From: Photorhabdus luminescens subsp. luminescens
Lineage (GTDB): Bacteria > Pseudomonadota > Gammaproteobacteria > Enterobacterales > Enterobacteriaceae
Reading direction: 5' to 3'
DNA length: 64,000 bases
Assembly (NCBI RefSeq): GCF_001083805.1
Contig: NZ_JXSK01000001.1
Span: forward strand, 620,001 to 684,000
A program made the translations under genes and the position numbers. The notes below the pieces were generated by a model. It saw only the letters and a list, made by a program, of their open reading frames with translations. It was not told the origin of the DNA and searched no databases. This document shows positions 33,728 to 64,000 of the stretch, piece after piece (the stretch's first letter is position 1; every line of letters starts with the position of its first letter).

Positions 33728-33746
33728 CTAAACTTAAGGAGTATAT

Positions 33747-34790: not shown

Positions 34791-34860
34791 GCTTTAAAGA
34801 AGGCACCCAAAGATATTTATGCAGGTGTGAGATTAGTATAGCAAATAAAACCTCATCTCC

Positions 34861-34880: not shown

Positions 34881-34928
34881 TCCAGGGAAACAATTCTTCC
34901 TGGACTACATACGCTAGTATGTCCGGTT

Positions 34929-35012: not shown

Positions 35013-35020
35013 TTATTCTT

Positions 35021-35071
35021 CGGGCTTTTCAAGCCCGTCCCAATTTCCCTCCCGCCTTATGTCGGCGGGAG
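35021..35071. mobile_element. Candidate IS200/IS605 right-end hairpins
   Basis: Two perfect stems lie just after the TnpA remnant: CGGGCTT/AAGCCCG with a 3-base loop (35021-35037) and CTCCCGCC/GGCGGGAG with a 7-base loop (35049-35071). They are probably the subterminal hairpins of the lost element. They now lie in the leader of the LysR gene, 19 bases before its ATG, and could influence its expression. Confidence 0.45.
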
Positions 35072-35089
35072 TACCCTTTGGAGGAAAAG

Positions 35090-35998: not shown

Positions 35999-36007
35999 AA
36001 AGTGAAA

Positions 36008-36046
36008 GCGCTTTAATGGCGGTAATTATCACCGTCATTAAAGCGC
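36008..36046. terminator. Bidirectional terminator between LysR and OYE genes
   Basis: A 16-bp stem with one mismatch (GCGCTTTAATGGCGGT / ACCGTCATTAAAGCGC) and a 7-base loop lies midway between two convergent stop codons. Confidence 0.7.
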
Positions 36047-36055
36047 ACAGTACAA

Positions 36056-37168
36056 TTATGCGCTTAATTGCTCTAAAGTAGGATAATCGGTGTATCCTTC
36101 AGGGCCATTAGCATAGAAGAATTCTGGACGTTGCTCGTTCAGGGGGGCGCCAATCCGCAGTCGCTCAACTAAGTCAGGATTAGCAATAAAGTTTCGCCCG
36201 AATGCCACTGCATCAATTAATCCTTTTGCAATCAGTTCCTCCGCTTTCTCGGCAGTATAAGCGCCTGCCGCAACAATCACACCAGGATAAGCCTCGCGGA
36301 TAGTTTGACGAAATGCTTCACTGAAAGGTTCTCCTCCAGCCCAATCAGGTTCGGAAATGTGTAGATAAGCCAGATTACGTTTTGCCAACTCGCGGATCAG
36401 GTAAAGCGCGGCTTGCTCCTCATCTTCATAACGACTTAGACCATTATATGGCCCTAACGGATAGATACGGATGCCAATCCGATCAGAACTCCAACTTTCA
36501 GTGGCAGCATCCACCACTTCCAGAGCAAATCGCGCACGGTTCTCAATATTGCCGCCATATTCATCATCACGTTGATTGGCTGCGGGCGACAAGAACTGAT
36601 GAATAAGATAACCATGCGCGGCATGGATTTCCATCATGTCGAAGTCAGCTTCTTGCGCATTGATGGCTGCCTGACGGTAATCGCTGACAATCTGATGAAT
36701 TTCATCTTTCTTCAAAGCTCGCGGCTTGGACGTGTCGATTCGAATCACATTGCCTTGAGCGTCTCGCACCGAGGTCCGCGTGTTAGCAAATATCGCAGAA
36801 GGCGCCACTGGAGCTTGCTGTCCGGGTTGAAGAGATGAGTGAGATATTCGCCCCGTATGCCATAATTGCACATCGCTAAGGCCACCCGCTTGATGAATTC
36901 CTTCATTAATTTTTTTCCAGGCGCTTATCTGTTCAGACGTATGCAAACCGGGCGCGCCTGAATAACCTTTCGCCTGAAATGAAACCTGTGTAGCCTCAGT
37001 GATGATCAATCCGGCGCCAGCACGTTGACGATAATATTCAGCCATCATTGATGTGGGAATATCGCCGGGTTCAATACTTCGCAAGCGGGTAAGAGGCGCC
37101 ATAAAAATACGATTAGGCGTAGTAATAGCACCTATTTTTAATGGATTAAACAGATGGGGAAATTTCAT
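36056..37168 (-). CDS. Old Yellow Enzyme-family flavin oxidoreductase (NemA-like)
   Basis: A 370-residue FMN enzyme that reduces activated alkenes, nitrate esters or N-ethylmaleimide with NAD(P)H. Motifs: [53 protein letters not shown] and [16 protein letters not shown]. The ATG at 37168 is chosen because AGGAGG (as CCTCCT on the + strand, 37173-37178) precedes it; a longer frame to 37207 adds 13 residues without support. The in vivo substrate is unknown. Confidence 0.94.
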
Positions 37169-37621
37169 AAATCCTCCTTTATATGAGATCGCGAAATACT
37201 CAGACAAGAAAACGTATTTGTATTATTTTGTTGATGAGGGAAGGGTAATTGGTAAGAAAATCATGTTCAACAGTTTTAACTTGATGCATAAATCCAGTGA
37301 ATTTATAATTCATTGTTTTAATTGATTTTAATTTCAATTAGGGAGAGTATGTACCTTAATATGGGAGCGATATTCCCCAAGTTGCTAATAATCAAACTTC
37401 AGAAGGAAAGGGGAATTAAGAGTAGATATATTGAGATGAAATCAAAGACTGTTTAGTTAAAATTTATAGCAATTAATGCTATTTCCATATTATGAAGAAT
37501 CTAATTTGCTAATATTTTCGAAATGACATTAATCAAATCCCCGGAAGAGAAAGCAGTCATAGTTCATATTGAAAGGAACAACTACCAGCGCCCGTACCCT
37601 GATGATTCCAGAACATCATTG
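37169..37621. other. Gap without a recognisable gene
   Basis: About 450 AT-rich bases hold the leftward promoter of the Old Yellow Enzyme gene. Apart from that I see no coding frame, RNA or repeat that I can support. Confidence 0.4.
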
Positions 37622-37646
37622 AGGCCAATTTTTATCAAATTGGCCT
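37622..37646. terminator. Hairpin after the esterase gene
   Basis: A perfect 10-bp stem AGGCCAATTT / AAATTGGCCT with a 5-base loop, 13 bases past the stop codon of the leftward esterase gene. Confidence 0.65.
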
Positions 37647-37658
37647 GATAGATACTTT

Positions 37659-38579
37659 TCAACAAAAGCGGGGCTTTTTGTAAAATACTTCAACAAATGG
37701 CGTCATCGCAGTCATATGCATCGCACCATGTATCATTCCCTCAATAGTTTCAATCTGTACAGACACACCGGCATCCCTTAATTGCTGTGCATAAGATTCT
37801 CCTTCACTTCTTAGCGGGTCATATTCGCAAAGCAAAATAGTTGCATCTGGCAATCCTTCAAAATGCGTTAAATTAGCAGGCGAGATAAGTGGATTTGTTC
37901 TGTCGTTGTGCTCACTGATGTATGCCTGCCAAAAGAATGTCATCATCTGCTTTGTCAATACATAGCCTTCACCATATTTATCGTATGAATCCGTTTCCAT
38001 TGATGCATCTAACGCTGGATAGAATAGCAATTGATGGCAAATAGCAGGTCCTTTTTGGTTTCGCGACATCAAACAAGCCGCAACGGCAAGATTACCCCCT
38101 GCGCTATCACCGCCGACCGCGATTTGTTGCGTATTGATGCCAAATTTTTCCGCATTATCCGTGATATAGCATAGAGCTGCATAGAAATCCGTTAGTGGTA
38201 CCGGAAAAGGGTTTTCGGGGGCAAGCCGATAATCTACCGAGAAGATAACGCAACCCGTTGATTCCGCCAGCTTGCGGCAAGGACGATCCCAGGCATCAAG
38301 ACTGCCTACGCACCACCCACCGCCATGAGCATAAACCAGCGCAGGTTTATCACTCATCTTTTCTTTTCCATAAGGTACATACACGCGAACAGGAATGGGG
38401 AAACCATCCTCTGCGGGGACAGTAAAGCTGCTATTATATGTCGCATCGTTCCATTCGCCCTGTTGTTGGATAAGAGTATCCTCAATAGAGATTCGAAGTT
38501 GTTCCAAGGGGGAATTTGCTGTTATTTCAATTTCAGGCATGGAAGCAAGCCATTTTTCAACATTTTTATCAAGCGGCAT
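37659..38579 (-). CDS. Alpha/beta-hydrolase, hormone-sensitive-lipase type esterase
   Basis: A 306-residue serine esterase. The oxyanion-hole motif HGGGWCVGS and nucleophile GDSAGGN are typical of the HSL (family IV) group; the catalytic Asp lies in the CEYDPLRSEGESYA region and the His in EGMIHGAMH. The tail after the His is short and ends in YKKPRFC, where homologues usually have a longer amphipathic helix, so the C-terminus may have been altered. Substrate unknown. Confidence 0.88.
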   Translation of the reverse strand: MPLDKNVEKWLASMPEIEITANSPLEQLRISIEDTLIQQQGEWNDATYNSSFTVPAEDGFPIPVRVYVPYGKEKMSDKPALVYAHGGGWCVGSLDAWDRPCRKLAESTGCVIFSVDYRLAPENPFPVPLTDFYAALCYITDNAEKFGINTQQIAVGGDSAGGNLAVAACLMSRNQKGPAICHQLLFYPALDASMETDSYDKYGEGYVLTKQMMTFFWQAYISEHNDRTNPLISPANLTHFEGLPDATILLCEYDPLRSEGESYAQQLRDAGVSVQIETIEGMIHGAMHMTAMTPFVEVFYKKPRFC

Positions 38580-38744
38580 AATGATGATTCCTCTGTAAAA
38601 AGGTGATTACCAGATGGCAAAATTTCTCGTGTCGCGTACTGAGCGCCAATAATAGCTAAAACCAGCATAGATAATTGTGTACGAGCTGGGCAAATCACCG
38701 AAAAAATACGCTGATAGTAATTGAGAATAAAAAAACACCGGAGA

Positions 38745-38770
38745 AGAAGACCTTTTAAGTGGTCTTTTTT
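38745..38770 (+). terminator. Terminator-like hairpin
   Basis: AAGACC-TTTTAAGT-GGTCTT followed by a run of T. It lies between the esterase start and the toxin-antitoxin pair; no rightward gene precedes it, so it may attenuate the antitoxin transcript or insulate it. Confidence 0.5.
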
Positions 38771-38800
38771 GTTTCTCTTCTGAACAAAGAAAGCTACTAT

Positions 38801-38820
38801 AAGACTTACTAACAAGTCTT
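38801..38820. promoter_or_regulatory. Palindrome before the antitoxin gene (candidate operator)
   Basis: A perfect 7-6-7 inverted repeat (AAGACTT-ACTAAC-AAGTCTT) ends 13 bases before the antitoxin ATG. Its position fits autorepression by the antitoxin-toxin complex, as is common for RelB/Phd-type modules. Confidence 0.5.
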
Positions 38821-38833
38821 TTGGAGTATTTCT

Positions 38834-39085
38834 ATGGCTAATATAATTCTGTCTGAGATTAGCGCAAGCGTTAGTGAGCTTAAAAAGAACCCTATGGCGA
38901 CCGTTAATGCTGGGGCTGGATACCCTGTTGCGATCCTAAATCGTAACCAACCTGTGTTTTATTGTATTCCTGCGGAACTCTACGAACAGATACTTGATAC
39001 TTTGGACGATCAAGAGCTTATTCGACTAGTAAATGAGCGTAGAGGACAGGCATTGGTTGATGTAGATCTGGATAATTATCTATGA
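38834..39085 (+). CDS. Antitoxin of a type II TA pair (StbD/RelB-like, Phd/YefM fold)
   Basis: An 83-residue antitoxin resembling StbD: ISASVSELKKNPMATVNAGAGYPVAILN is the Phd/YefM DNA-binding start, followed by QPVFYCIPAELYEQI and a charged C-terminal toxin-wrapping tail. It overlaps the toxin gene by 4 bases (ATGA). Confidence 0.9.
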   Translation: MANIILSEISASVSELKKNPMATVNAGAGYPVAILNRNQPVFYCIPAELYEQILDTLDDQELIRLVNERRGQALVDVDLDNYL

Positions 39086-39369
39086 CCTATAGCGTGAAAT
39101 TCAGGGAAGATGCTCTCAAGGAGTGGGAGAGGCTTGATAAATCAGTCCAACAACAATTTGCTAAGAAGCTGAAAAAGTGTTGTGTTGAACCTCATATTCC
39201 ATCAGCTAAACTTCGAGGCATGCCGAATTATTACAAAATAAAATTACGCGCTTCTGGTTTTCGCTTGGTTTATGAAGTCATGGATAATGTGTTGATCATC
39301 GCCGTGGTAGCAGTTGGTAAGCGCGAGCGGAATGAAGCGTATGAGCTGGCAAGTAAGAGACTAAGATAG
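39082..39369 (+). CDS. RelE/StbE-like mRNA interferase toxin
   Basis: A 95-residue RelE-fold toxin that would cleave mRNA on the ribosome. Features: YSVKFREDALKEWERLDKSVQQQF, AKLRGMPNYYKIKLRASGFRLVYEV and the terminal VGKRERNEAYELA. The basic/aromatic surface residues expected for catalysis (Lys/Arg, RLVYEV) are present, so it looks intact. Confidence 0.9.
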   Translation: MTYSVKFREDALKEWERLDKSVQQQFAKKLKKCCVEPHIPSAKLRGMPNYYKIKLRASGFRLVYEVMDNVLIIAVVAVGKRERNEAYELASKRLR

Positions 39370-39762
39370 ATAAGGGAATAATATTGCCAAGAAATTAAAA
39401 AGGGAGTTAATTTTAATATTACTGAAAATTAAATTTCGACACCTATCATCAAAGCAGAAGAGGGGATAAATGAAGAAGTTATCTATGTCCCGGATACAGC
39501 AAAAACAACGCAAGTAAGTAACATTAGTATGAATTAGTTCAATATATGAAGTCACGTATAGAAAATTCAAAAACCTTCTATACGTGAAATTGTTCATTTA
39601 GTTTTCTATTACAATGAAATTTACGAGAAAAATATAAAAATGATCAGTCATTACGTTGTTAATCCTTTAGTTAATTAAGAAGGAGCCAGTAATACGTACT
39701 GGCATCAACCCTGCGCAACAACCGTGAAGCAAACATTTTGTGAAGTTATATGAGGTTATCTT
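39370..39762. other. Gap with a perfect inverted repeat
   Basis: About 390 bases without a supportable gene. A perfect 12-bp inverted repeat, TCACGTATAGAA / TTCTATACGTGA (39552-39563 and 39576-39587), has no T run after it; it may be a terminator for the TA operon or an operator. GAGG at about 39750 leads into the next gene. Confidence 0.5.
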
Positions 39763-42700
39763 ATGAAGAGCGAGTTTAAAGAAGGATACTGTACCCTCTG
39801 TAGATCGAGATGTGGCACTGTCAACGAAGTTCGTAACGATACATTGATAAAAATCAAGCAGAACCCAAATCACCCCACCGGCAATGCCATGTGTATGAAG
39901 GGGAAAGCTGCACCAGAATTAGCTCATAGTCCTAACCGGATTCTTTATCCTCTCCGTAGGACAAATCCCAAAGGTGATGCAGATCCAGGTTGGGAAAAAA
40001 TCACCTGGGATGAAGCTTTGAAATATGTTGCTGAGAAACTGGCTTTCTATAAGGCTGAGTCTGGTTCAGAATCGATTGCTTTCTCAATCACCTCACCGAG
40101 TGGAACACCTCTTAGTGATAGTTTTGAATGGATAGAACGCTTCACGCGACATTTCGGCAGCCCTAACGTCTGCTGTAGTACAGAAGTGTGTAACTGGCAT
40201 AAAGACGAGGCACATAAGTTTACTTTTGGATGCAGTATTCCTGTGGCTGATTACAGAAATGCCGAGTTGATCATTTTATGGGGACACAATCCAACAAATA
40301 CCTGGCTTGCGCAAGCTGAAGCTATTGGAACAGGCAGAAATGCCGGCGCCAAACTTATCGTTGTCGATCCTAAACATACGGCTCTTGCTAGAGAAGCGGA
40401 TAATTGGCTCAACATCAATCCTGGGACGGATGCCGCGTTAGCCCTTGGGCTAATAAATATCATCATAAACCGAAGAGGATATGATCAGACATTTGTAGCA
40501 CGGTGGACGAACGCCTCATTGTTGGTCCGAAATGATAATGGTCTTTTCTTGCGAGAAAAAGATATAAACATTTCAGCTCAGAAAAACAGATATGTTGTCT
40601 GGAATAATATAACTCAGTCTCCGCTAACGTATGATATTCACGAAAATGTGTCATGTGATGAAAATGATAATTATGCTTTATTCGGCGAATTTTCGGTTAA
40701 CTCTGCGAAAGATGTGAATAAAAAAATACAATGTAAATCTGCATTCCAACTACTTATAGATGAGTGTCAACAATACACCCCTGAATATGTAGAGAAAATC
40801 ACAGGCATAACCAAAGAAAAACTCCTATATGCAGCAGATTTAATCATGTCTTCCAAGCGAATTGCTTATCATTCTTGGACTGGTGTGGCTCAGCATACCA
40901 ATGCAACCCAGACTGAACGAGCAATTGCCGTGTTGTACGCATTAACGGGATGCTTTGACACTCAGGGAAGCAACAGGGTGTACAATAAACATCCCGTTAA
41001 TCCAGTGAATGACCGCAAACTTATGCCAAAAGAACAGCAAGAAAAAGCACTTGGCTTTAAGGAAAGACCGTTGGGGCCACCGCTAGATGGCTGGGTAACA
41101 TCACAGGATTTGTATCAAGCAATCTTGCGCAAACGACCTTACCCTATTAGAGCTATGATGGCATTTGGTACGAATATGTTGTCATCTCATGCTGACACAA
41201 AGATTGGGATAGATGCGCTAAAACAGCTTGAGTTTCATGTTCATTGTGATCTCTTTGAAACGCCTACCGCACATTATGCTGACATCTTACTACCCGTGAA
41301 TACGCCTTGGGAGAGAGAAGGGCTACGTGTAGGATTTGAGATTTCAGGTGAGGCAGAAGAGCTAGTTCAGTTAAGACAAAGAATGATTTCGCCTCGGGGA
41401 GAAAGCCGGTCAGATAATGAAATTGTCTTCGACTTGGCCTGTCGCTTAGGCATGAATGATATATTCTTTAATGGCAGCGTTGAAGCGGGATGGAATTATA
41501 TTCTTGAGCCCATTGGCTTGACCGTAGAGGCGTTAAGAGAAAAGCCGGAAGGAATTTCAATTCCATTAATTCAGAGTGATAGGAAATACGCGGGAATCGA
41601 TCCAGTTAAGAACACAGTTAAAGGTTTTGATACCGAAACAGGAATGGTTGAAATCTATTCTGAGAAATTGTGGCGGCATGGTTATCCACCACTCCCGATA
41701 TATGATGAACCAAAAGAGAATTTAAATTCTGAGTCACATTTCCCTTATCGACTGACCTCGGTAAAAAATGGCTTCTATTGTCATAGCCAACAGAGAAGTT
41801 TAGCCAGCCTGCGTAAAAAATCACCTTATCCTAAACTTGATATAAACAGTAAATTGGCTGAAAAGAAAGGTATTAAAAATGAAGATTGGGTAGAAGTCAT
41901 CACCCGCAATGGCAAAGCACTCTTTAAAGCCTCGTTAGATGATAATATTGCTTACGATACGATAATTGCTGAGTTTGGTTGGTGGCAAGCGTGCCCCGAT
42001 TATGGGAAAGAGGATTTTCCCGTCATAGGAAAAAACAACAGTAACTATAATGCGCTCATTTCTGACGACTCTTGCGATCCTATTAGCGGCGCTTCTCCGC
42101 TCCGTTCATTCCGCTGTGATATTAAACTCGCAGAAGATGTCAACCCGGAAAGAAGGCCGTGGCAAGGCCGTAAGGCATTTCGGGTTGTAGGTACAAAACT
42201 CGAAGCCAAGGGTGTCAAAACCGTTGTTTTTGAGTCAAAAGATGGAGGAATGTTGCCTGATTATGAACCTGGTCAGCATATTACGGTACAAGTTTCCATA
42301 CCTGGGCAGGATACCCCTGTCATTAGGGCCTATTCTTTAACAGGAACGGCAACACAGGAAGATAGAAAGACTTACAGTATCTCCGTACGGCATCAAAAAA
42401 GCATAACTTCTAACGGAGAAATTTTTGAAGGCGTCATGTCTTCATATATTAATAGGGCACTGGTAGCAGGAGCCGAAGTGGATCTGACGCCTCCGGGAGG
42501 AAACTTTATTATTCCGCTTAATGCTAAGCAACCTGTTGTTATGTTGGCAGGAGGAATTGGTATTACTCCATTCATAAGTTATCTTGAATCTCTTCCAGCT
42601 AACGGTGAAAATCCTGAACTCTTATTGCTGTATGCTAATCAAAACAGCAATACACATGCTTTTTCCAAAAGGCTAAAAGAACTTGAGTCAAAAATTAAGC

Positions 42701-54274: not shown

Positions 54275-55363
54275 ATGAAACCAGTAACCAACAATAATTT
54301 CTTAAGAAAAATTAATATAAAAGGCTACAAATCTATCTTAGAATGTGATTTACAAATGGGATGTCTAAATGTACTCATTGGTGCCAATGGTGCTGGGAAA
54401 TCCAATTTCATCAGTTTTTTTCGCCTAATCGCCGTTGTACTTGATCATCGTTTACAATCTCTTGTTGGCAAAATGGGCGGCCCCGACACATTATTGCATT
54501 TTGGTCGTAAAAAAACTGAGTCTATAAGCGCTGAGCTTTATTTTGGTCACAATGGTTATAAGTTTGAACTGGAACCCACAAATGATAACCGTATGATGTT
54601 CCAACATGAATCACTCTTTTTGGACACCAAAGGGGATTATAATATTGGTGCTGGACACTTTGAATCTCAGATCGTTCAGCATCATAACATTGAGGATTAC
54701 GCATTACTTACTATGCTCCGATGGAGGGTTTACCATTTCCATGATACGAGTGATAATGCCAGAGTTAAACAAACTCATCGTATTAATGATAATGACTATT
54801 TACGGGAAGATGGCGCTAATTTAGCGGCATTCTTATATCGTCTGCAAAAAAATCATATTCTGCACTACAAACGCATTGTCAAAACCGTTCAAATGGTTGC
54901 ACCATTTTTTGGTGATTTTTACTTGCGGCCCACCCCGGATAATACTGATTACATTCAACTCGAATGGACAGAGAAAGAGCAGGATATTCCCTTTAAAGCG
55001 AGTGAATTGTCCGATGGTACTTTACGATTTATTTTATTGACTACCGTGTTACTGCAACCCGAAGACTATATGCCAAGTTCAATTATTATTGATGAACCAG
55101 AGCTTGGACTCCACCCCTATGCTATTAATGTACTGGCTGGTTTGATCAAAAACGCCAGCAGTAAGCACCAACTGATTATTTCTACCCAGTCAGTCGAACT
55201 GGTTAATCAATTTGATGCTGATGATTTGATTATCGTTGACAAACAACAAGGGGCATCTACCTTTAAGCGTCTGAATAGTGACTTTCTTTCTGAATGGCTT
55301 GAAGACTATAGCCTTGGTGAATTATGGAAGAAAAACTTACTCGGCGGGAGGCCACAGCGATGA
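54275..55363 (+). CDS. OLD/AbiEii-like AAA (ABC-type) ATPase
   Basis: A 362-residue ATPase of the AAA_15/AAA_21 group. Walker A is in IGANGAGKSNFI, the ABC-type signature in ELSDGTLRFILLTTVLL, Walker B in IIIDEPELGLHPYAI, and the switch in IISTQSVELVNQF. This class drives many phage-defence pairs with TOPRIM nucleases. It overlaps the next gene by ATGA. It lacks a C-terminal nuclease domain itself, which the partner would provide. Confidence 0.88.
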   Translation: MKPVTNNNFLRKINIKGYKSILECDLQMGCLNVLIGANGAGKSNFISFFRLIAVVLDHRLQSLVGKMGGPDTLLHFGRKKTESISAELYFGHNGYKFELEPTNDNRMMFQHESLFLDTKGDYNIGAGHFESQIVQHHNIEDYALLTMLRWRVYHFHDTSDNARVKQTHRINDNDYLREDGANLAAFLYRLQKNHILHYKRIVKTVQMVAPFFGDFYLRPTPDNTDYIQLEWTEKEQDIPFKASELSDGTLRFILLTTVLLQPEDYMPSSIIIDEPELGLHPYAINVLAGLIKNASSKHQLIISTQSVELVNQFDADDLIIVDKQQGASTFKRLNSDFLSEWLEDYSLGELWKKNLLGGRPQR

Positions 55364-55821
55364 TCCGTATCAATGTTTTTGTAGAAGGGCAAACGGAGGA
55401 AACTTTTGTGCGGGATGTGTTAGCTCCCTATTTTGTAGCACAGCAAATCTATCTGACGCCAATATTAGCTCAGACGAGTACCAGTCAGAAAGGCGGTATT
55501 ACAAGTTACGGTAAGGTAAAATATCAAATTACTCGCTTATGTCGACAAGATCCCAGTGCATTCGTCACAACATTAATTGACTACTATGGCTTGCCTACTA
55601 ATTTCCCTGATTATAATGAACAACAGGATAATGCAGCTAACGAACGGGTAGTTAAGCTAGAGCAAGCTTTCGCTAATGATATTGGGCAAACTAATTTTAT
55701 TCCCAACCTGTTATTACATGAATTTGAAGCACTGTTGTTTTGCCAACCTGAAAAATTTGCGGATTGGCTTGATGACAACGCCCCCATTTCAGCATTACAA
55801 ACCATCAAAGCTCAAACTTAA
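55360..55821 (+). CDS. DUF4276 protein, probably C-terminally truncated
   Basis: A 153-residue protein with the DUF4276 start INVFVEGQTEETFVRDVLAP; EGxTE is the pattern of the first acidic motif in TOPRIM folds. Later blocks SYGKVKYQITRLCRQD, TTLIDYYGLPTNFP and NFIPNLLLHEFEALLF fit the family. Members I know continue to about 210-230 residues with TAPSKR and CPHF blocks; these are missing here, and no other frame restores them. It may be inactive or a short variant. Confidence 0.75.
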   Translation: MIRINVFVEGQTEETFVRDVLAPYFVAQQIYLTPILAQTSTSQKGGITSYGKVKYQITRLCRQDPSAFVTTLIDYYGLPTNFPDYNEQQDNAANERVVKLEQAFANDIGQTNFIPNLLLHEFEALLFCQPEKFADWLDDNAPISALQTIKAQT

Positions 55822-56022: not shown

Positions 56023-58434
56023 TTAGAGGTGTTGTAATAGATGCTTAGCACCAATCTGAATACCAAACAGCGTAAGTACGTCGTAGCATTGTTCGGTGGT
56101 TAATCGACGCTCCTGACAGTATTGCTGACACTGAACAATATCCAGAGAAGACGAGGGTTGCAACGGCGAGAAAACAATACTCCCGGCAGTAAAATAACCT
56201 GAATACCGACTATCTGCTTCTTCACTCTTTTCTGTGCCTAAAGTAACATCAAAACTAAAAAACTGTCCTTTTTCAGACCAAGGCTCTGGTTTAATATTCA
56301 CCGTCAGAGTCAATGCCTGTTCTGTTTCTGCCATGATGATCGGCTTCGCCCAACCAATGTTGCGCAAACTCAGCTGATTTGTTGCAAATGGGATATCCGC
56401 GCTTTCTATCTTGTTTGACAGCAACAGTATGACTGCATATCGTACAAACTCAAGATGAACCACACCGGGAAGAACCGTTTGCCCATTGACTATATGCTCA
56501 CGTAAGTAGTGCTCAGTAGCGTTAACACGAAATTGATAGGATTTCTGTTCATCATTCAATTTAAATGGCGTAGTCAGCCCATCAGAGGAAGAGGAAAATG
56601 GCGGGCGATGGACAGCCCCTAAAAATGCACGAACTGGCAAACCTGACAGACGACGTGGATGCGTATTTCCCCATAAGAGTGACCAGTCAGGTTCTTCACC
56701 TTTTAACCAACGAAGCGCTAACTCAGCGAGCTCCCGATCTGTCAGGAATAGAGATATTGATTGTTGCGTCTGTAATACCGATCTTAACGTCTCTTCCTGC
56801 CGGGGTTCCTCTACATTCTGAATACAGATATCGCCATTAAGTACGCTATCTAGTTGTAATATCAGCTCAGGTAAATAAGATACGCCCAACATTACCCGAT
56901 ATTGTCGCGCTTCACGGGATTGCAACGTGAATGCTAAACGCGCTAAATCAACATCCTGTTTCTGTAAATACCGTTTTATCTGAACAACATAATCGTGTAA
57001 CGATGCCTCCGAGTGCGACGACAACGGTATTAATACTGGCATGGTTGTTCGCTTAGCGCCGGTATTTTTCTGCCCGATAAACTCCTTAACGACGACGTGT
57101 GTGTTATATCCCCCTCCGGCAAATGAATTGATACCGGCAATCCTGGGTAATGAATATCCTTCCCGTGTGGAAGATTCCCATTTTCTATTCTGACGATTCA
57201 GATATAGCCCGGAACCCTCTATCCCCAAACTGTCATCAATCTCGCTTAGTCCCTGAATCCCGATAATTGTCTGATGACGCAGTTGCAGCAAAACTTTCAC
57301 CAGCGCCACCAGCCCGGAAACAGCCTCCGTGTGCCCAATAGCGCCTTTTACGGTGGATAAATGGATATGTTGATCAGGCCGAAAAACTTTTTTTAAGGCG
57401 GTGATTTCAGTGAAATCGCCGGCTCTGACGCCGGATGCATTACACTCAATAACGGAGAAATCATCTGCCGATACCCCCGCATTTTGCCAGGCTTTAATGA
57501 GGGTTTTAGCCTGCTGTTCAACATTGGCGGAAATAAGTGAAAATGTTCTTCCGCTATTATTTGCCGCTCCACCGGCAATAATGGCATAGACATCATCGCC
57601 ATCTTGTTGCGCTTTTAACAGCGATTTAAGCACCACAGAGACCACCGCTTCTCCCCTGAGCTGTCCTTTGCTTCGCCGACTGAACAATTCAGGCGCTGCC
57701 GTCGGCGATAGAATTCCTTCTTCACGGGCAATAAAACCGTAAGGATGCAGGAAAAGACTGGTCGCACTGACAATAGCCTGATCCATCTGCCCTGAGCGAA
57801 TCAAATCATACGCTCCAAGCAATGCAGTGAGACCTCCCGTACATTCGGTATTAACAAATTGGGTGGGGCCCTGAATATCAAGAAATTGGGCTATCCGGCC
57901 TGATGACATCGCAGGTTCATTACCCGCCCAATAATAGAAGTTTTCCTCTACTTTATTGTCCCTCAACAGCTTTTCATAGTCACCAGACAAGGTTGAAACG
58001 AAAAGAGCTGTACGATCTCCACTCATATCTTGGTTTGTGTGACCACTGTCTTCAATGCTTTGAACAATGACTTCAAGCAGTAGGCGATGCTGAGGGTCCA
58101 TGTACTGTGCGACTGCGGGTGGAATCTGGAAATATTGTTCATCAAACCGGAAAATATCATTAATAAACCCGGCGAAACGAATTATCGTTCCCACAGACAA
58201 CCTTGGACGCTCCTCAGGAAATACAGAGAAACCCAGCTTTCCTGCAAGGAGGTTTTCCCAGAATTGAGCTACAGAATCAGCCTGCGGAAAGCGCCCCGCT
58301 ATCCCAACAACCGCAACTTGCTCATTCTGAACAGATCTTGCTGACGACTGGATCGTTACCTCTGAACTATTTTTCTGCCGGCGTGTTGTCTCTAATCGCG
58401 GTCTGTGCCCCGAAAAAGCTGTTTCAGACGCGTT
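56023..58434 (-). CDS. Polyketide synthase fragment: non-canonical KS and truncated DH
   Basis: The open frame runs from a TGA at 58435-58437 to a stop at 56023. No ATG, GTG or TTG occurs before the conserved KS start (QVAVVGIAGRFPQADSVAQF); the first TTG, at 58200, already lies inside the KS domain. The KS keeps the Cys (C120 counted from 58200, in NTECTGG) and the second His (H290, IGHTEA), but the first His is Asn (N254 in ECNASGV). A KS linker and the first hotdog of a dehydratase (REHIVNGQTVLPG) follow. The protein then ends before the DH catalytic Asp. It is likely a non-elongating KS0 and is probably read through from the SnoaL gene by frameshift. Confidence 0.8.
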   Translation of the reverse strand, partial: NASETAFSGHRPRLETTRRQKNSSEVTIQSSARSVQNEQVAVVGIAGRFPQADSVAQFWENLLAGKLGFSVFPEERPRLSVGTIIRFAGFINDIFRFDEQYFQIPPAVAQYMDPQHRLLLEVIVQSIEDSGHTNQDMSGDRTALFVSTLSGDYEKLLRDNKVEENFYYWAGNEPAMSSGRIAQFLDIQGPTQFVNTECTGGLTALLGAYDLIRSGQMDQAIVSATSLFLHPYGFIAREEGILSPTAAPELFSRRSKGQLRGEAVVSVVLKSLLKAQQDGDDVYAIIAGGAANNSGRTFSLISANVEQQAKTLIKAWQNAGVSADDFSVIECNASGVRAGDFTEITALKKVFRPDQHIHLSTVKGAIGHTEAVSGLVALVKVLLQLRHQTIIGIQGLSEIDDSLGIEGSGLYLNRQNRKWESSTREGYSLPRIAGINSFAGGGYNTHVVVKEFIGQKNTGAKRTTMPVLIPLSSHSEASLHDYVVQIKRYLQKQDVDLARLAFTLQSREARQYRVMLGVSYLPELILQLDSVLNGDICIQNVEEPRQEETLRSVLQTQQSISLFLTDRELAELALRWLKGEEPDWSLLWGNTHPRRLSGLPVRAFLGAVHRPPFSSSSDGLTTPFKLNDEQKSYQFRVNATEHYLREHIVNGQTVLPGVVHLEFVRYAVILLLSNKIESADIPFATNQLSLRNIGWAKPIIMAETEQALTLTVNIKPEPWSEKGQFFSFDVTLGTEKSEEADSRYSGYFTAGSIVFSPLQPSSSLDIVQCQQYCQERRLTTEQCYDVLTLFGIQIGAKHLLQHL

Positions 58435-59354
58435 TCATGTTGAGAAAAATCAAGTCCCAGGAAAAACAGATAGTTCTCAGGATAAGTTTGAATTTTCGTA
58501 ATATAACGATCGTCCATCTCCAGCTTCAATGTACATAACATGCCGTTCAAGCCGGATAAAACAAAGGGAGATGCCTGCGTTAACCCTATTCTGACAAATA
58601 AGGTTAGAGAATTCCTGTCGCGAATAAACAACTCATCAAATAGTGCTACCCCTCCCTCCCCGATCGCCGTCCGTAATGCATAAATAAAACTTTTCCACTC
58701 AGCAATTCCATATCCTTTTATATCGCCATTATGAAATATCAGCTCCGGGTGTAGCAGATTGTTAATTCGGCGTAACGCACCATGACCAAAGACACAATTA
58801 ACAAGCTGTTGAGCCCATTTACTCATCTGCACAGACTGTTCATCGCAGTTTGTATGCAAACGTTCATTTTCTTTAACCAGCAAACGGTGCTGCCAGGGAG
58901 GATAATCCAGACGCTCTTCAGAGAAAGGGCTACCAAGCAGAAAAAGAAAGTTCTGTGCTTGTTGCCATAGCTCAACGATTTTGCCGTCACGGATACGCAT
59001 TGCGACCTGACAAAAATTAGAGTATTCCCCACCAGAAATAACATCATCATGCCAGCAATCCGCTTTCCAACGGTGCAAGAGATGCAGGGTATCATCCTGA
59101 ACAATAACGCTTTCCGGGATCAGTTTTAAATTGGATATGTTTTGCCTTACAGAATGAATAAACTCCTGAAACGCCTGAGCGCTTTTCAACTCATTACCCT
59201 GCATATGACAAACACAGGTTTGAGCGAACAGATTATTAAAGACGTCAGAAGATAATTCATCTTCCCATGCCTCTTTCAACCCCAGAACAAACTCCATGTA
59301 CGGATGTTGCAGCAACCAAGTTGTTTTATCGATCATAGAAATGCCACCCATCAC
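58392..59354 (-). CDS. Tandem SnoaL-like (NTF2-fold) protein of the PKS cluster
   Basis: A 320-residue protein with two NTF2/SnoaL-like halves. The first (FNNLFAQTCVCHMQGNELKS...WKADCWHD...QVAMRIRDGKIVELWQQAQNF) and second (INNLLHPELIFHNGDIKGYG...LKLEMDDRYITKIQTYPENY) each show the beta-strand/helix pattern of cyclases, dehydratases and isomerases of polyketides. ATG 59336 has the better RBS (GGTGG); ATG 59354 is the longer option. Its 3' end overlaps the KS frame, offset by one base. Confidence 0.72.
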   Translation of the reverse strand: MMGGISMIDKTTWLLQHPYMEFVLGLKEAWEDELSSDVFNNLFAQTCVCHMQGNELKSAQAFQEFIHSVRQNISNLKLIPESVIVQDDTLHLLHRWKADCWHDDVISGGEYSNFCQVAMRIRDGKIVELWQQAQNFLFLLGSPFSEERLDYPPWQHRLLVKENERLHTNCDEQSVQMSKWAQQLVNCVFGHGALRRINNLLHPELIFHNGDIKGYGIAEWKSFIYALRTAIGEGGVALFDELFIRDRNSLTLFVRIGLTQASPFVLSGLNGMLCTLKLEMDDRYITKIQTYPENYLFFLGLDFSQHETRLKQLFRGTDRD

Positions 59355-59358: not shown

Positions 59359-61167
59359 TCATATGAATAATTGGGGTTTGTCTTGTCTTACTTTGCTATC
59401 TTTTAAGTAAGGCAGTCGTACCTGATGCCCCATTGACTTCAACTGCATGAGTTTCTGAAATATCAAATCGGTCTGTTGTTGACGATCTTCGGGGCGTGCA
59501 TGTGTTGCTATCTGTCTAAGAAAATCGAAGTACTCCTTGTCAATGGCGACATTCTCCTGCCAGAGTTCACGTGCAACCTTTCCGCTGGTTTGACCATCTA
59601 TCTCACCGAGCAAGAAGAAAGAACTGATTCGGTTTCTTGCCTGTTCAACAACGCCGCTTAGAAACTTAAGCGCATCCACTGCACCAATATTCGATTCCAT
59701 GAAGGTGTCATAAATAGTCTGTGTTTTCGCAAAACCACGGACATGGGTGGAGTAATATTCACCATAGATTCCCGGTGATTGAATGATTTTTGACGCAATA
59801 GAGGACATAAAGGTCGCGATACTTAAATTTGAGCCGGAAGTAAACCACGTACTGGTTCCACTCCCGCCGACCAGCGCCCAGTTTTCTCCGGTAAATCGTT
59901 CATACATGAAATGTTGTGTCGGGAGACTGACGATTTCCCGGCGACATGTGAAATGTTTTGAATAATCTAATCCCCGTCTCTTATAAGCTTTCGTCAGCAA
60001 AGCAATAATTTCTTCTGCCGTGCGATCACGAATATCTTCAGGCAACATACTGATGCCAACTGATATATAACTGCCCATCGGTATCAGCCAGGAAACCCCT
60101 TTTAACTGATCAAACTCTTCATCCGCACTCAGCAACGATGTCGCATGGACCCAAGGAAGTGCCTCTGAGTCACAAAGCTTGCTTCCCGCTTTTTGATAAT
60201 AGTGGGTAAAAATCACTTCCCGGAGATTATCAAGATCGATGTATGGGAGCCCGATTTTACGGCCTAATAAACGGATGTGGTTAGTACAATCCCATACATA
60301 AGCGGGTTGAATAATCTGTCCGTCTGACAATTGAAGTAATGAAATCCTGTCACTGTCCTCAGAATATTCAACATGTTCAACTAATGTTTCAATCCAGATA
60401 CATTCAGGAGCCGCAATAACTTCATCGTAAATAGCCTTATCAAATCCAAGCCTGTCAATATGAATAAAATGCTTCGGAATATCTTCTTCCATGAAAAGCG
60501 AAGCCAGCGATTCGAAAAAGTGGAATCGCAGCCCGGCGACTAATTCTCCCATAAAAAATGGCGTGAACTCTTTGGAATAAAAATAGCGGGACAGCTTTTT
60601 AAAACGCCGGGCAAATTCAATACTCACAACTTCAGTCATAGATTCACCGAGTTTTGGCGTATCACCGATTTCCGGCTTACCTACTACGATATGCGGGATC
60701 TTATCCTGAATAAGCTGATGGCTGATTAGCATACTTGCGATGCCGCCGCCAATAATGACAGGAAGATGTTGTTTGGTATCTCGACTCATTCCCTCCATAT
60801 AAGCGACATCTACCATATTTTTGAGGCAACAAGCACTTTGACCGGCGTTTTCATCCTCCTGAAAAACATTCTCTTTTTTCTCTATTAACGCGACCGAGGA
60901 TGAAGCAGTAAGAAATTGTTTAACTGCTGGCATCTGATAGGTAATGAGATAATCGGCAAATTTATCCAGCGTTGTGAACTCAAACAACACGCCGGGATGT
61001 ATCTCTTCATCCAGAATATAGGAAATCTTATCTGTAAAGGTGACCAGCAATTTAGAATCAAATCCCAGATCCTGAATATGTGCTTCAGCGCTAATATCAC
61101 CGTTACGCTGTAACACTTCTTTCACTATTGTTTTCAGTGATTCCAGTAACACATTCTTCTCATTCAT
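59359..61167 (-). CDS. ACP fused to a halogenase-like flavoprotein
   Basis: A 602-residue protein. Residues 1-80 are an acyl carrier protein with the phosphopantetheine Ser38 in DLGFDSKLL. From about 135 a flavin-dependent oxidoreductase follows: Rossmann start VIIGGGIASM, then PKLGESMTEVVSIEF (GES as in flavin halogenases), GVSWLIPMG (halogenases usually have WxWxIP) and VGGSGTSTWFTSGSNL. It probably halogenates or oxidises the chain tethered to its own ACP. The first W of WxWxIP is missing, so oxygenation is an alternative. It starts just after the PKS stop, with RBS AGGAG. Confidence 0.78.
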   Translation of the reverse strand: MNEKNVLLESLKTIVKEVLQRNGDISAEAHIQDLGFDSKLLVTFTDKISYILDEEIHPGVLFEFTTLDKFADYLITYQMPAVKQFLTASSSVALIEKKENVFQEDENAGQSACCLKNMVDVAYMEGMSRDTKQHLPVIIGGGIASMLISHQLIQDKIPHIVVGKPEIGDTPKLGESMTEVVSIEFARRFKKLSRYFYSKEFTPFFMGELVAGLRFHFFESLASLFMEEDIPKHFIHIDRLGFDKAIYDEVIAAPECIWIETLVEHVEYSEDSDRISLLQLSDGQIIQPAYVWDCTNHIRLLGRKIGLPYIDLDNLREVIFTHYYQKAGSKLCDSEALPWVHATSLLSADEEFDQLKGVSWLIPMGSYISVGISMLPEDIRDRTAEEIIALLTKAYKRRGLDYSKHFTCRREIVSLPTQHFMYERFTGENWALVGGSGTSTWFTSGSNLSIATFMSSIASKIIQSPGIYGEYYSTHVRGFAKTQTIYDTFMESNIGAVDALKFLSGVVEQARNRISSFFLLGEIDGQTSGKVARELWQENVAIDKEYFDFLRQIATHARPEDRQQQTDLIFQKLMQLKSMGHQVRLPYLKDSKVRQDKPQLFI

Positions 61168-61169
61168 CT

Positions 61170-64000
61170 CTATACTCCTTTTTCAATGCAATATTCTGCA
61201 AAAAACCAATATCTCTGTTCATCAAACGGGTAACCGGGAATATCAACGTATATCCCCTGACCATGAGCAAAAGCCCGCCAATCGATACAAGCGCCAGCAA
61301 TCCAATCGTCCGCCAGTTGTTTCAACACAGGTAATGCCGTGGAAAATTCAACCTGTTTTTTTGATGTACGGCTTTTTTGAGAAACCATTCCCATTGCAAC
61401 CATACCGTCTGTCGTGGCTTCATTTTTCTCTGCGATAACCCACTCCAGTACCGCGATGAGTTTTTCTAAATCGTTAACGATAATCGCCATGCGAAATGGC
61501 ATATCTGAGCGACCCGTCTGGGAGCTGTAAGCCAGGTTCCTTAACGTGAACGCGTTACCATTACGGGATGACTTTTCCTGGCGTACATAATCCCGCCACT
61601 GGCTCAGATATGTATTTAAGGTTTTACGGTTTTTTGCAGAGATGGTGATTAAAAAGTAATCTCCATTTTTTGGGGGAGCCGATTCTGCTGACCAATGAGG
61701 TTCTTCCAAAATGACATGTGCATTTACACCCGTGATCCCAATCGAGTTTAAACCGGCCCGCCTTGGTTGTGTTTTGTCTAAGCCGGTTCGCTGCCATGAA
61801 ACCGGTTCAAGAGGAAAGAACAAGGGAGTATTCTCAATAAAAATCGAGGGATGTAATTTAGAAAAAGAAGCAATGGGCGGGATTATTCTATGCTTCATTG
61901 ACAATATCACTTTAATCAGTGACGCCATACCAGAAGCCGCTTCTAAGTGACCAATGTTGCCTTTAACCGTGCTGACTACACAACGATATGAAGCACAATG
62001 ATGTAGAACTGAATGATGTAGAACTGAATGATATGGAGCTGGTTGATTTGCTGAGAAAATCTTTTTAAACGCAGCAACTTCGCTGGCATCATTAAATTGA
62101 GTCGCAGAGCCGTGGGCTTCAATATAGTCAACAGAACAGGGATCGATACCCGCTAAACGGTAGGTATTTCTAATATTCTCTTCTTGCTTCTCAATACTCG
62201 GCGCCATTGACGAAAATGCGCTCCGGCCATTATGAGAAACGCCTACACTTCTGATGACGGCCCGGACAGGATCACGTTCAAGGCGCGCCTGTTCCAAGGG
62301 CTTAATCATGACAGCACCTACTCCTTCGCCCCTGATATAGCCATCTGCCGTGTAGTCAAAAGGTGCCATTTTGCCTGACTGACTGAGAATTCCTCCCCGA
62401 TCTCGAATATAAAACTCCATAAAATCAAGGATGATGTTAACCCCCGCGACAATAGCCACATCACAATCACCTAGCAAAATAGCCTGCCGGGCTTTTTGCA
62501 GAGCGACAAACACACTGGCGCAGGCGTTATCCACCACTTCACTTGGGCCGGTAAAGTTGAAGAAATATGAGATCTGATTAACCATCATGCCCAAACTGAG
62601 GCCAGACTGTAATCCGCCATATTCTCCGGCGTTTTTGATCAGAGATTTGTATTCGGTGGAATCAACGGCAACAAATAATCCGACTCTACGCTGTGTGAGG
62701 TATTCCAGATCAGAACCGGCATGCTCAATACATCGCCAGATACACCGCATAAGCAAACGTTGCTGTGGGTCCATCTGTTTTGCCGTTTCTGCATCAATTC
62801 CCCAGAATTCAGCATCAAACTGATCGATATCTTGCAAAAAACCGGATGATTGCATGCGTTTTACCGCATCTTCTTTGTCAGGCGGTGTGATGATGTGGCG
62901 CTGTTGCCACTCTTCCTGAGTGATCCCCTGAATAGAAACCGTTTTTTGGACAATGTTCTTCCAATACGCTTCCGCATTCTTAGCGCCGGGAAACATACAG
63001 TCATATCCCACAATGGCAAAAGATGGCGCCGTGGCAGGTACAGGCATCGCCGGTGATGGTGATGATGTGTCAGCAGTGGTTAAATCAGCAGTGGTTAAAC
63101 GAGTTTGCTCTGACAAAAGCTGCGTCAGATGTTCTGCCACACGGCTTAGTGTGTTGAACTCTAAAAAAGTCGCCTGTGACAGTGTAACTTCAAAACAGGC
63201 ATTAATATACTCGGCCAATTCAATCAGCCCGACGGAATTCATTCCATAGTCACCAAATTGCCGATGGATATCGATTTCATCACTGCGCATACTTAAGAGT
63301 TCAGATAATTTACCGGCAACAATATCAACAATGGTTTCTACCGACGTCTGTACCAATAAAACGGAATTTATGTTCTGTTGGTCGCGGTTTAATGACTCGA
63401 TTCTCGCCTCATATTCTTCAGTCGGTGAAGTAGTTGAAACATCATGAGTTGCATCAGAGGTAGATGAAGAATCGGCAGAGAATCTCAAGTAATCCGCAAT
63501 CTTTTGACTGTCGCCCTTCATCACGCCAAACTGAGAGAAAGGTGAACGAAGGGCAATTTCCAGTGTTTCCAGCGCAGTTTTCGTGTCCAGGGGCACAATA
63601 CCAAAGGTATCAAACATTTGCTCTTTTACCCTCTGAGTCACGTTCATGCCACCCTCCAGCCAAAGAGGCCAGTTGATTGACAGACTTTTTCCGCTTCTTT
63701 TTTGCTGTCGAACTAAATCCTCACGATACGCCGCAAAATTATCCAGAAAGGCGTTGGCCGCCGCGTAATCTATCTGACCGATATTCCCCAGGGAAGCAAG
63801 TGAAGAGAACATGACAAAAAATGCCAGAGGCTCGTGTTGGGTAACTTCATCTATCAAACAGGCCGCCGATGCCTTCGTGGAGATCACACGGTCAATCTCC
63901 TCCTCGGTTTTATTGATAATCAGAGCATCATGGATCACTCCGGCACAATGGATAACACCGCGCAGAGAGCCAAAGCGCTGACGAATAAGCATCATGGTTT
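61170..64000 (-). CDS. Polyketide synthase, KR-ACP-KS module (5' part outside window)
   Basis: At least 941 residues, open to the window edge. Order: C-terminal part of a ketoreductase (GVIHCAGVIHDALI, catalytic Ser in MFSSLASLG and Tyr in DYAAANAF), an ACP (GDYGMNSVGLIEL, Ser attachment), and a full KS with Cys in DNACAS, His in EAHGSATQ and His in KGNIGHLEAASG. A post-KS linker ends in YPFDEQRYWF. No acyltransferase domain is present, so this looks like a trans-AT assembly line. It passes its product to the ACP-halogenase protein. Confidence 0.9.
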   Translation of the reverse strand, partial: TMMLIRQRFGSLRGVIHCAGVIHDALIINKTEEEIDRVISTKASAACLIDEVTQHEPLAFFVMFSSLASLGNIGQIDYAAANAFLDNFAAYREDLVRQQKRSGKSLSINWPLWLEGGMNVTQRVKEQMFDTFGIVPLDTKTALETLEIALRSPFSQFGVMKGDSQKIADYLRFSADSSSTSDATHDVSTTSPTEEYEARIESLNRDQQNINSVLLVQTSVETIVDIVAGKLSELLSMRSDEIDIHRQFGDYGMNSVGLIELAEYINACFEVTLSQATFLEFNTLSRVAEHLTQLLSEQTRLTTADLTTADTSSPSPAMPVPATAPSFAIVGYDCMFPGAKNAEAYWKNIVQKTVSIQGITQEEWQQRHIITPPDKEDAVKRMQSSGFLQDIDQFDAEFWGIDAETAKQMDPQQRLLMRCIWRCIEHAGSDLEYLTQRRVGLFVAVDSTEYKSLIKNAGEYGGLQSGLSLGMMVNQISYFFNFTGPSEVVDNACASVFVALQKARQAILLGDCDVAIVAGVNIILDFMEFYIRDRGGILSQSGKMAPFDYTADGYIRGEGVGAVMIKPLEQARLERDPVRAVIRSVGVSHNGRSAFSSMAPSIEKQEENIRNTYRLAGIDPCSVDYIEAHGSATQFNDASEVAAFKKIFSANQPAPYHSVLHHSVLHHCASYRCVVSTVKGNIGHLEAASGMASLIKVILSMKHRIIPPIASFSKLHPSIFIENTPLFFPLEPVSWQRTGLDKTQPRRAGLNSIGITGVNAHVILEEPHWSAESAPPKNGDYFLITISAKNRKTLNTYLSQWRDYVRQEKSSRNGNAFTLRNLAYSSQTGRSDMPFRMAIIVNDLEKLIAVLEWVIAEKNEATTDGMVAMGMVSQKSRTSKKQVEFSTALPVLKQLADDWIAGACIDWRAFAHGQGIYVDIPGYPFDEQRYWFFAEYCIEKGV

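What the first reader, a model, noticed from the sequence alone, without database searches (positions are those of the whole stretch)
59359..64000. Trans-AT PKS line that hands its chain to an ACP-fused halogenase-like enzyme
The KR-ACP-KS protein has no acyltransferase and ends after a KS and its linker. The next protein starts with an ACP (Ser38) fused directly to a flavin enzyme with halogenase features (GES motif, WLIP). A built-in carrier and tailoring enzyme on one chain would give on-line halogenation or oxidation of the tethered intermediate. Known PKS halogenases are mostly free-standing, so this layout may define a new type of tailoring step.
Basis: partly seen in the sequence, partly recalled or inferred. 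Interest (0 to 1): 0.8.

Follow-up and report, generated by a model that had tools for sequence, protein, structure and literature searches.

The report
Carrier-fused flavin enzyme in broken polyketide line
A bacterial polyketide assembly line carries a flavin enzyme fused to its own carrier domain that probably oxidises the growing chain on the spot; it resembles halogenases but lacks two of their motifs, and in this genome the pathway is partly broken while apparently intact copies exist in Xenorhabdus.

Summary
Window 59359-61167 (-) encodes an ACP (Ser38) fused to a FAD enzyme, directly after a trans-AT PKS protein ending KR-ACP-KS. A free-standing AT lies about 7 kb beyond the window edge, so trans-AT is supported. 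'Halogenase' is only partly supported. By profile score the FAD part is closest to variant-B (carrier-dependent) halogenase-like flavoenzymes and keeps GES and a possible catalytic lysine (K199). It lacks WxWxIP and F.[DE]P.[EFL], which 32 and 31 of 32 panel-B proteins have. The last KS looks elongating, the ACP is probably its split-off carrier, and the next protein's KS is a KS0 (His to Asn, 3 of 3 genomes). That junction resembles the mupirocin alpha-hydroxylation bimodule, but with another flavin fold, fused to the ACP. I favour on-line alpha-oxygenation of a beta-ketoacyl-ACP; halogenation and epoxidation-cyclisation remain possible. Orthologues (83-84% identity) exist in Xenorhabdus griffiniae and X. 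budapestensis, with open frames. In this genome the line is a remnant: three frame breaks and a truncation, with the NRPS-TE and exporter genes not found. The Xenorhabdus lines hold a second ACP-flavin-KS0 unit (ACP-nitroreductase). No function was tested; the AlphaFold model failed.

The parts
61170..64000 (-). C-terminal part of a trans-AT PKS protein: KR (partial, runs off the window), ACP, KS with intact Cys-His-His, post-KS linker; no AT
   Evidence: Pfam; active-site alignment; continues past the window edge
63126..63320 (-). ACP of the KR-ACP-KS protein
   Evidence: PF00550 residues 227-291
59359..61167 (-). ACP-FAD fusion protein, 602 aa, frame open
   Evidence: orthologues
60946..61140 (-). 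N-terminal ACP, phosphopantetheine Ser38
   Evidence: PF00550 E 1.6e-9
59728..60771 (-). FAD domain (about residues 133-480), divergent relative of variant-B halogenase-like flavoenzymes; GES 174-176, candidate Lys K199, V-S-W-L-I-P 358-363 in place of WxWxIP, no F.[DE]P.[EFL] or F..P..S.G
   Evidence: hhalign and motif counts
58392..59354 (-). SnoaL/NTF2-like domain with a weakly supported second half; in Xenorhabdus it is the N-terminus of a 2990-3006 aa PKS protein, here split off by a frame break
   Evidence: Pfam; halves compared (probability 35%); frames
56023..58200 (-). Remnant of the same PKS protein: KS0 (first active-site His replaced by Asn), linker, truncated DH
   Evidence: Pfam; active-site alignment; match ends at X. 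budapestensis residue 1113 of 2990

Best explanation
The ACP-FAD protein is the second half of a split trans-AT PKS module with an oxygenase built onto its carrier. The terminal KS of the preceding protein elongates the chain onto this ACP, which the free-standing AT loads with malonate (inferred from the order of domains). No KR or DH was found on this protein, so the ACP would carry a beta-ketoacyl chain. The fused FAD enzyme, with reduced flavin and O2, then oxygenates the activated alpha carbon (alpha-hydroxylation most likely). The next protein begins with a SnoaL-like domain and a non-elongating KS0, which accepts the oxidised chain and passes it to its DH-ACP. This works like the alpha-hydroxylation bimodule of mupirocin (MupA) and oocydin (OocM), but with a halogenase-like FAD fold fused to the ACP instead of a trans-acting luciferase-like enzyme. 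Shown: gene order, domains, active-site residues, conservation of the layout. Inferred: substrate, reaction, order of events. In the window organism the line is broken and probably makes no product; the working version would be that of X. budapestensis and X. griffiniae.
For: Domains and discrete AT. The last KS before the ACP-FAD protein has Cys-His-His; the KS of the following protein has His to Asn in 3 of 3 genomes. FAD part nearest to variant-B-like flavoenzymes by panel score: 109.2 panel B (32 proteins), 79.7 reductases (18), 64.6 tryptophan halogenases (17), 46.5 group-A monooxygenases (25); best of 20 shuffles 26.6, 17.7, 22.1 and 23.3. WxWxIP in 32 of 32 and F.[DE]P.[EFL] in 31 of 32 panel-B proteins, 0 of 3 orthologues for both. 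WxWxIP is proposed to shield the substrate and so prevent oxygenation (passages of PMC10696468, and PMC8407142), so its loss fits an oxygenase. A KS0 after the oxidised ACP, a beta-keto requirement and ACP dependence are described for MupA (passages of PMC10952193).
Against: No usable structure: the AlphaFold model has mean pLDDT 38.9. The profile of the FAD part found no PDB sequence up to E 10. Against single sequences the best score was with a tryptophan halogenase (L030, 56.4; then L029, 44.8), ahead of the best panel-B member (L083, 39.8). Possible retention of the catalytic lysine would favour a halogenase. MupA is luciferase-like, so the mechanism rests on analogy of junctions. A DH follows without a KR for this module, which simple alpha-hydroxylation does not explain. 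GGSG..STWFTSG stands where panel B has GD or GN..DPVFSSG, so flavin binding itself is unproven.
Confidence: 0.45

Rival explanations
1. It is a true on-line halogenase: the FAD enzyme makes HOX, K199 guides it, and the enolisable beta-ketoacyl chain on the fused ACP is chlorinated or brominated at the alpha carbon.
For: Closest panel is the variant-B-like group, closest single sequence a tryptophan halogenase; a bridging protein of panel B, L083, matches first 3nix (a flavoprotein/dehydrogenase) and then CndH, CmlS, ChlB4, PltA and other halogenases in the PDB; K199, invariant in 3 orthologues, aligns with the conserved Lys of panel B; variant-B enzymes act on carrier-bound substrates (PMC8407142, passages).
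Against: WxWxIP and F.[DE]P.[EFL] are absent in 3 of 3 orthologues; the glycine two residues after the panel Lys is Phe here; the lysine assignment depends on the alignment. That some real halogenases such as Bmp5 lack WxWxIP (PMC8407142, passages) weakens this objection.
Confidence: 0.2
2. Epoxidation and cyclisation: the FAD enzyme epoxidises an alkene set upstream on the tethered chain and the SnoaL-like domain of the next protein opens the epoxide to a cyclic ether, as Lsd18 and Lsd19 do in lasalocid.
For: A flavin enzyme is followed at once by a SnoaL/NTF2-like domain that may be tandem (the second half rests on a 35% hhalign probability and had no Pfam hit in the window or X. budapestensis); an upstream KS-DH-KR-ACP module can provide an alkene; Lsd18 is a flavin epoxidase working with the Lsd19 epoxide hydrolase, probably on a PKS-bound chain (passages of PMC12144862). 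That Lsd19 is a double NTF2-like protein is recalled.
Against: The only PDB sequence match of the SnoaL part up to E 10 has E 1.2 and is neither Lsd19 nor MonB; the FAD part scores lowest with group-A monooxygenases, the class to which the Lsd18 paper assigns Lsd18; no Lsd18 or MonCI sequence was compared directly.
Confidence: 0.17
3. The FAD part is a reductase or dehydrogenase related to geranylgeranyl reductases that saturates or desaturates the tethered chain, or has lost catalysis and only serves as a scaffold.
For: Second-best panel score is with geranylgeranyl reductases (79.7), and TIGR02032 gives E 0.0014; the nearest PDB relative of bridging protein L083 is annotated flavoprotein/dehydrogenase; altered GD segment.
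Against: Score lower than panel B; GES and the candidate Lys follow panel B rather than the reductases; the FAD part is well conserved between genera (87-91% identity against 52-61% in the linker), which does not suggest a dead scaffold.
Confidence: 0.13

Closest known systems
Variant-B flavin-dependent halogenases (CndH, CmlS, PltA, ChlB4 type)
   Same: Closest panel by profile; GES, possible Lys, second half of WxWxIP, S-V-G and S-G segments; works with a carrier protein
   Different: First Trp of WxWxIP and F.[DE]P.[EFL] missing; fused to its ACP; embedded in a trans-AT PKS junction; about 20% identity only
Alpha-hydroxylation bimodules of trans-AT PKSs (mupirocin MupA, oocydin OocM, calyculin CalD)
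   Same: Flavin enzyme at the junction between an elongating module's ACP and a following KS0; beta-ketoacyl-ACP as probable substrate
   Different: MupA is a separate luciferase-like enzyme, with CalD and OocM similar to it; here a halogenase-like FAD enzyme sits on the ACP protein; a SnoaL-like domain precedes the KS0
Lsd18/Lsd19 (lasalocid) epoxidase and epoxide hydrolase
   Same: Flavin enzyme plus SnoaL-like domain acting on a PKS-bound chain
   Different: Separate proteins; different flavin subfamily by score; no sequence match of the SnoaL part to Lsd19
Fused flavin halogenases KrmI (ThiF), AoiQ (O-methyltransferase), XanH (flavin reductase)
   Same: Halogenase-type flavin domain on one chain with another domain
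   Different: None of these three, the fusions found with the term 'fused' in PMC8407142 (passages), is with an ACP

Membership tests
Trans-AT polyketide synthase | Modules without embedded AT | tested here: met
   No AT hit in the PKS frames upstream or in the window pieces
Trans-AT polyketide synthase | Discrete AT gene in the cluster | tested here: met
   PF00698 E 3.2e-33 on a 291 aa protein, ORF at 71362-72237 in window-extended coordinates; 83-87% identical in both Xenorhabdus lines
Flavin-dependent halogenase (variant B) | GxGxxG dinucleotide motif | tested here: inconclusive
   GGGIAG in both Xenorhabdus, GGGIAS in the window copy
Flavin-dependent halogenase (variant B) | WxWxIP | tested here: not met
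   V-S-W-L-I-P in 3 of 3; 32 of 32 panel-B proteins have W.W.IP. Some real halogenases lack it (PMC8407142)
Flavin-dependent halogenase (variant B) | Tunnel motif, F..P..S.G or F.[DE]P.[EFL] | tested here: not met
   0 of 3 orthologues for both. F..P..S.G: 32 of 32 panel B but 0 of 17 tryptophan-halogenase-type proteins, so not general as I wrote it; F.[DE]P.[EFL]: 31 of 32 panel B, 17 of 17 tryptophan type, 1 of 18 reductases, 0 of 25 group-A
Flavin-dependent halogenase (variant B) | Catalytic lysine | tested here: inconclusive
   K199 aligned in hhalign with panel B and in three MAFFT modes with the five bridging proteins, though in those MAFFT alignments GES is not matched to GES; not when tryptophan halogenases are in the alignment, where residues near V180 fall there
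Flavin-dependent halogenase (variant B) | Halogenation of a carrier-bound substrate | not testable with these tools
   Needs assay
PF04820 Trp_halogenase | Score above the gathering cut-off | tested here: not met
   12.2 bits (13.1 for the FAD part alone) against 21
Geranylgeranyl reductase TIGR02032 | Score above the cut-off | tested here: not met
   18.3 bits against 158.8
Alpha-hydroxylation bimodule | Oxygenase at the junction before a KS0 | tested here: inconclusive
   A flavin enzyme lies before a KS0 (His to Asn) in 3 of 3 genomes; that it is an oxygenase is not shown
Alpha-hydroxylation bimodule | MupA/OocM-type luciferase-like oxygenase | tested here: not met
   The fused domain is a GxGxx(G/S) FAD enzyme; no MupA-like gene was looked for elsewhere in the genome
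Lsd18/Lsd19 pair | SnoaL part homologous to Lsd19 or MonB | tested here: inconclusive
   One PDB match up to E 10, at E 1.2, to another protein; fold not modelled

The most novel reading that the evidence does not exclude
The ACP-FAD protein founds a self-contained carrier-oxidase cassette for trans-AT PKSs: a variant-B halogenase scaffold that lost its substrate-shielding Trp and turned into an oxygenase fused to the carrier it serves. The same line repeats the plan with ACP-nitroreductase-KS0, so 'ACP-flavin enzyme then KS0' would be a general way to build oxidation steps into the line.
Probability: 0.3. Interest if true: 0.7.

Novelty: new variant of a known kind. Interest (0 to 1): 0.5.

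Why it matters
If confirmed, it would be a portable ACP-oxidase part for polyketide engineering and a natural test of whether losing the WxWxIP shield turns a halogenase fold into an oxygenase, which PMC10696468 (passages) names as worth exploring. It also points to a PKS-NRPS line in X. budapestensis and X. griffiniae that I did not find described in the listings or the passages; a transAT-PKS-like hybrid of other Xenorhabdus species mentioned in PMC10676414 was not compared.

Tried and rejected
Canonical halogenase: not the lead reading because two motifs are missing. Geranylgeranyl reductase and group-A hydroxylase: lower panel scores. Before panel B was split out, the mixed TIGR02032 panel, with five bridging halogenase-like proteins in it, scored 95.9, tryptophan halogenases 65.3 and group-A enzymes 41.2. 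Against single sequences the order was different: two tryptophan halogenases first (56.4, 44.8), then panel-B member L083 (39.8); I give the panels more weight because the panel-B alignment spans most of the domain (350 columns). The lysine: by eye I first set V210 against the tryptophan-halogenase Lys; MAFFT with those enzymes sets residues near V180 there; the closer panel B sets K199 there. This stays open. A relic under relaxed selection: lineage-specific codon changes in the ACP-FAD gene are similar in the three genomes (silent/replacing 59/27 window, 44/19 X. budapestensis, 51/27 X. griffiniae; 578 codons), so no accelerated decay of this gene is seen though its neighbours are broken. 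Homologues outside the three species: none in plasmids, phages or viral contigs; 1 of 12 same-genus genomes (the own one); 2 of 198 sampled family genomes (own and one at the X. griffiniae coordinates); 1 of 369 sampled class genomes (own, FAD part as query); 5 of 398 sampled phylum genomes with the profile, three of them weak matches (E 0.002-0.009) to proteins with tryptophan-halogenase motifs.

Panel selection: tryptophan-halogenase panel 17 of 26 loci; 7 had no ORF passing my filter, which required W.W.IP, and 2 were dropped by hand, so its 17 of 17 for W.W.IP is by construction. TIGR02032 panel: 25 of 30 loci gave a protein; 5 moved to panel B, 2 short ones dropped, 18 kept. Panel B: 35 loci, 32 unique; its five bridging members were picked for IGES. 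Group-A panel 25 of 25, several nearly identical. Panels differ in diversity (Neff 3.9-4.9), so scores are a ranking and not a proof.

Structure: one AlphaFold job gave a useless model; a second was not possible, so no fold search was run.

Full report
What is there. The window is a 64-kb stretch of a 1.2-Mb contig in a 5.46-Mb genome. ORF 59359-61167 (-) encodes 602 aa: an ACP (PF00550, residues 10-74, E 1.6e-9, Ser38), a variable linker and a flavin domain. It follows a PKS protein whose window part is KR-ACP-KS-linker without an AT hit. Reading past the window edge shows more PKS frames (KS-DH-KR-ACP-KS and KS-KR-ACP-KS), a cupin/JmjC-type protein, a Crp-type regulator and a discrete AT (PF00698, E 3.2e-33).

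Where it occurs. In a collection of one genome for each of 84,980 species, searched for close relatives only, 2 of 14 pattern matches encode a relative: Xenorhabdus griffiniae (83%) and X. budapestensis (84%). It is absent from the 11 other same-genus genomes held, found in 2 of 198 sampled family genomes (own, and one at the same coordinates as X. griffiniae), 1 of 369 sampled class genomes (own), and not in the plasmid, phage or viral collections. The X. griffiniae genome carries a different genus label (g13) from the window genome (g1); that the window genome is Photorhabdus is my inference from genome size and kinship and was not tested.

The line is open in Xenorhabdus and broken here. 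In X. budapestensis the order of ORFs is regulator, PKS (1721 aa), cupin, AT, PKS (3477 aa), ACP-FAD (617 aa), PKS-C protein (2990 aa: SnoaL-KS-DH-ACP-KS-C), hybrid (2379 aa: ACP-nitroreductase-KS-ACP-C-A-PCP-TE), then a DUF2306 protein, MMPL exporter, LolA-like protein, a protein without family and an AMP-binding enzyme (the first genes named by their window orthologues). X. griffiniae has the same order by BLAST from the first PKS on; its contig starts there, so a regulator could not be seen, and its proteins were not scanned with Pfam. In the window genome the genes present are 73-92% identical to these, but frames are split near 58.4 kb and, beyond the window, near 65.46 and 75.13 kb in window-extended coordinates. 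The match to the PKS-C protein stops at residue 1113 of 2990 (window 56041). The hybrid and exporter were not found: the 109 matches to the hybrid in the whole genome are 23-45% identical, the best-scoring ones 34-36% in C-A-PCP regions elsewhere, and the MMPL exporter has no match at E 1e-10 (which had no positive control). The frame breaks could be sequencing errors; the truncation can hardly be. The ACP-FAD gene itself is open, with GGGIAS in place of GGGIAG, and shows no excess of replacing changes.

What the flavin domain is. Pfam and NCBIfam give only sub-threshold hits to Trp_halogenase (12.2 of 21 bits) and the geranylgeranyl reductase family (18.3 of 158.8). A three-sequence profile finds no PDB sequence up to E 10 and, in 398 phylum genomes, besides two orthologues (own included) only three proteins at E 0.002-0.009, all with tryptophan-halogenase motifs (L030 confirmed by Pfam). 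I built panels of tryptophan halogenases (HAL, 17), reductases (GGR, 18), group-A monooxygenases (FPMO, 25) and variant-B-like enzymes (B, 32). Panel B came from a search with the CmlS model (NF033113) plus five IGES proteins of the TIGR02032 search. hhalign scores are B 109.2 (98.3%), GGR 79.7, HAL 64.6, FPMO 46.5; shuffled columns reach at most 26.6 in 20 trials per panel. Against single sequences the best were two tryptophan halogenases (56.4, 44.8) and then panel-B member L083 (39.8). L083 matches in the PDB first 3nix (flavoprotein/dehydrogenase) and then mostly halogenases: 5bul/5bva, CndH 3e1t, CmlS 3i3l, 5buk, ChlB4 7fco, PltA 5dbj. None of the 398 genomes holds a match over the CmlS cut-off, so panel B is 'halogenase-like' by family and not proven halogenases.

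Which features it keeps. It keeps GES (174-176), 'FTH' (320-322), S-W-L-I-P (359-363), S-V-G (369-371) and S-G (444-445). K199, invariant in three orthologues, aligns with the Lys of K-x-G-A-x-F in hhalign and in three MAFFT modes with the five bridging proteins; in those MAFFT alignments GES is shifted, and in alignments that include tryptophan halogenases residues near V180 fall at the Lys instead. It lacks WxWxIP (32 of 32 panel B) and F.[DE]P.[EFL] (31 of 32 panel B, 17 of 17 HAL, 1 of 18 GGR, 0 of 25 FPMO); both are 0 of 3 in the orthologues. The related form F..P..S.G is in 32 of 32 panel B but 0 of 17 HAL, so that form alone would not define halogenases here. [quoted passage not shown] Another review proposes WxWxIP as the feature that prevents hydroxylation (passages of PMC10696468). 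Ancestry is thus halogenase-like; strict membership fails two motif tests.

How it most likely works. All eight KS domains found in the X. budapestensis line were aligned. The KS just before the ACP-FAD protein has Cys-His-His; the KS just after it has Asn for the first His, also in X. griffiniae and in the window. A KS without an ACP behind it, followed by a protein starting with an ACP, reads as a split module. No KR was found on that module, so the ACP should carry a beta-ketoacyl chain. In mupirocin, MupA alpha-hydroxylates such a beta-ketoacyl-ACP at the junction to a KS0, needs the ACP, and presumably borrows a flavin reductase; OocM of oocydin is similar and needed the KS0 in its assay (passages of PMC10952193). 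I therefore favour alpha-oxygenation on the fused ACP. The enolisable alpha carbon would also suit halogenation (0.2), and the SnoaL-like domain suggests epoxide opening as another route (0.17). The DH after the KS0 without a KR for this module is not explained.

A repeat of the plan. The last X. budapestensis protein also starts with an ACP (residues 25-78, E 3.2e-8) fused to a flavin-type domain (nitroreductase, 167-341) and then a KS whose first His is Ala (the Ala also in X. griffiniae). Two ACP-flavin-KS0 units in one line suggest a recurrent design; with three related genomes this is still a single evolutionary case.

Verdict. It is a new variant of known on-line flavin tailoring, of moderate interest, present in the window as a remnant of a line whose apparently intact copies in Xenorhabdus can be tested. 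Literature was looked at through ten searches; I read passages only, of PMC8407142, PMC10696468, PMC10952193, PMC12144862, PMC11566119, PMC10676414, PMC9177418, PMC9113145 and PMC4979870. I saw no description of this line or of an ACP-fused flavin halogenase in them. [quoted passage not shown] none was compared in sequence.

Noticed in passing
window 54275-55821 (+): A two-gene pair scoring as HEC-01A (E 1.1e-156) and HEC-01B (E 2.4e-63), a candidate anti-phage system of PADLOC, sits right beside the truncated end of the PKS remnant; the second gene ends short of the models.
   Followed up: partly
L013:12153-19292 (X. budapestensis): ACP fused to a nitroreductase-family domain and a KS0 at the start of the terminal PKS-NRPS protein: a second ACP-flavin-KS0 unit in the same line.
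   Followed up: partly
L013:5154-12115 (X. budapestensis): MMPL exporter, LolA-like protein, DUF2306 protein and an AMP-binding enzyme next to the line; the MMPL/LolA pair recalls aryl-polyene export genes (recalled).
   Followed up: no
window 61170-64000 against X. budapestensis ORF 30119-40552: X. budapestensis carries two ACP motifs of the 'GDYGMDSV' kind before the terminal KS, while the window and X. griffiniae show one by the same pattern.
   Followed up: no
genome matches on contigs C1, C2, C5, C6, C7 and C8: The genome is rich in large NRPS and PKS frames, two of them over 10,000 residues.
   Followed up: no
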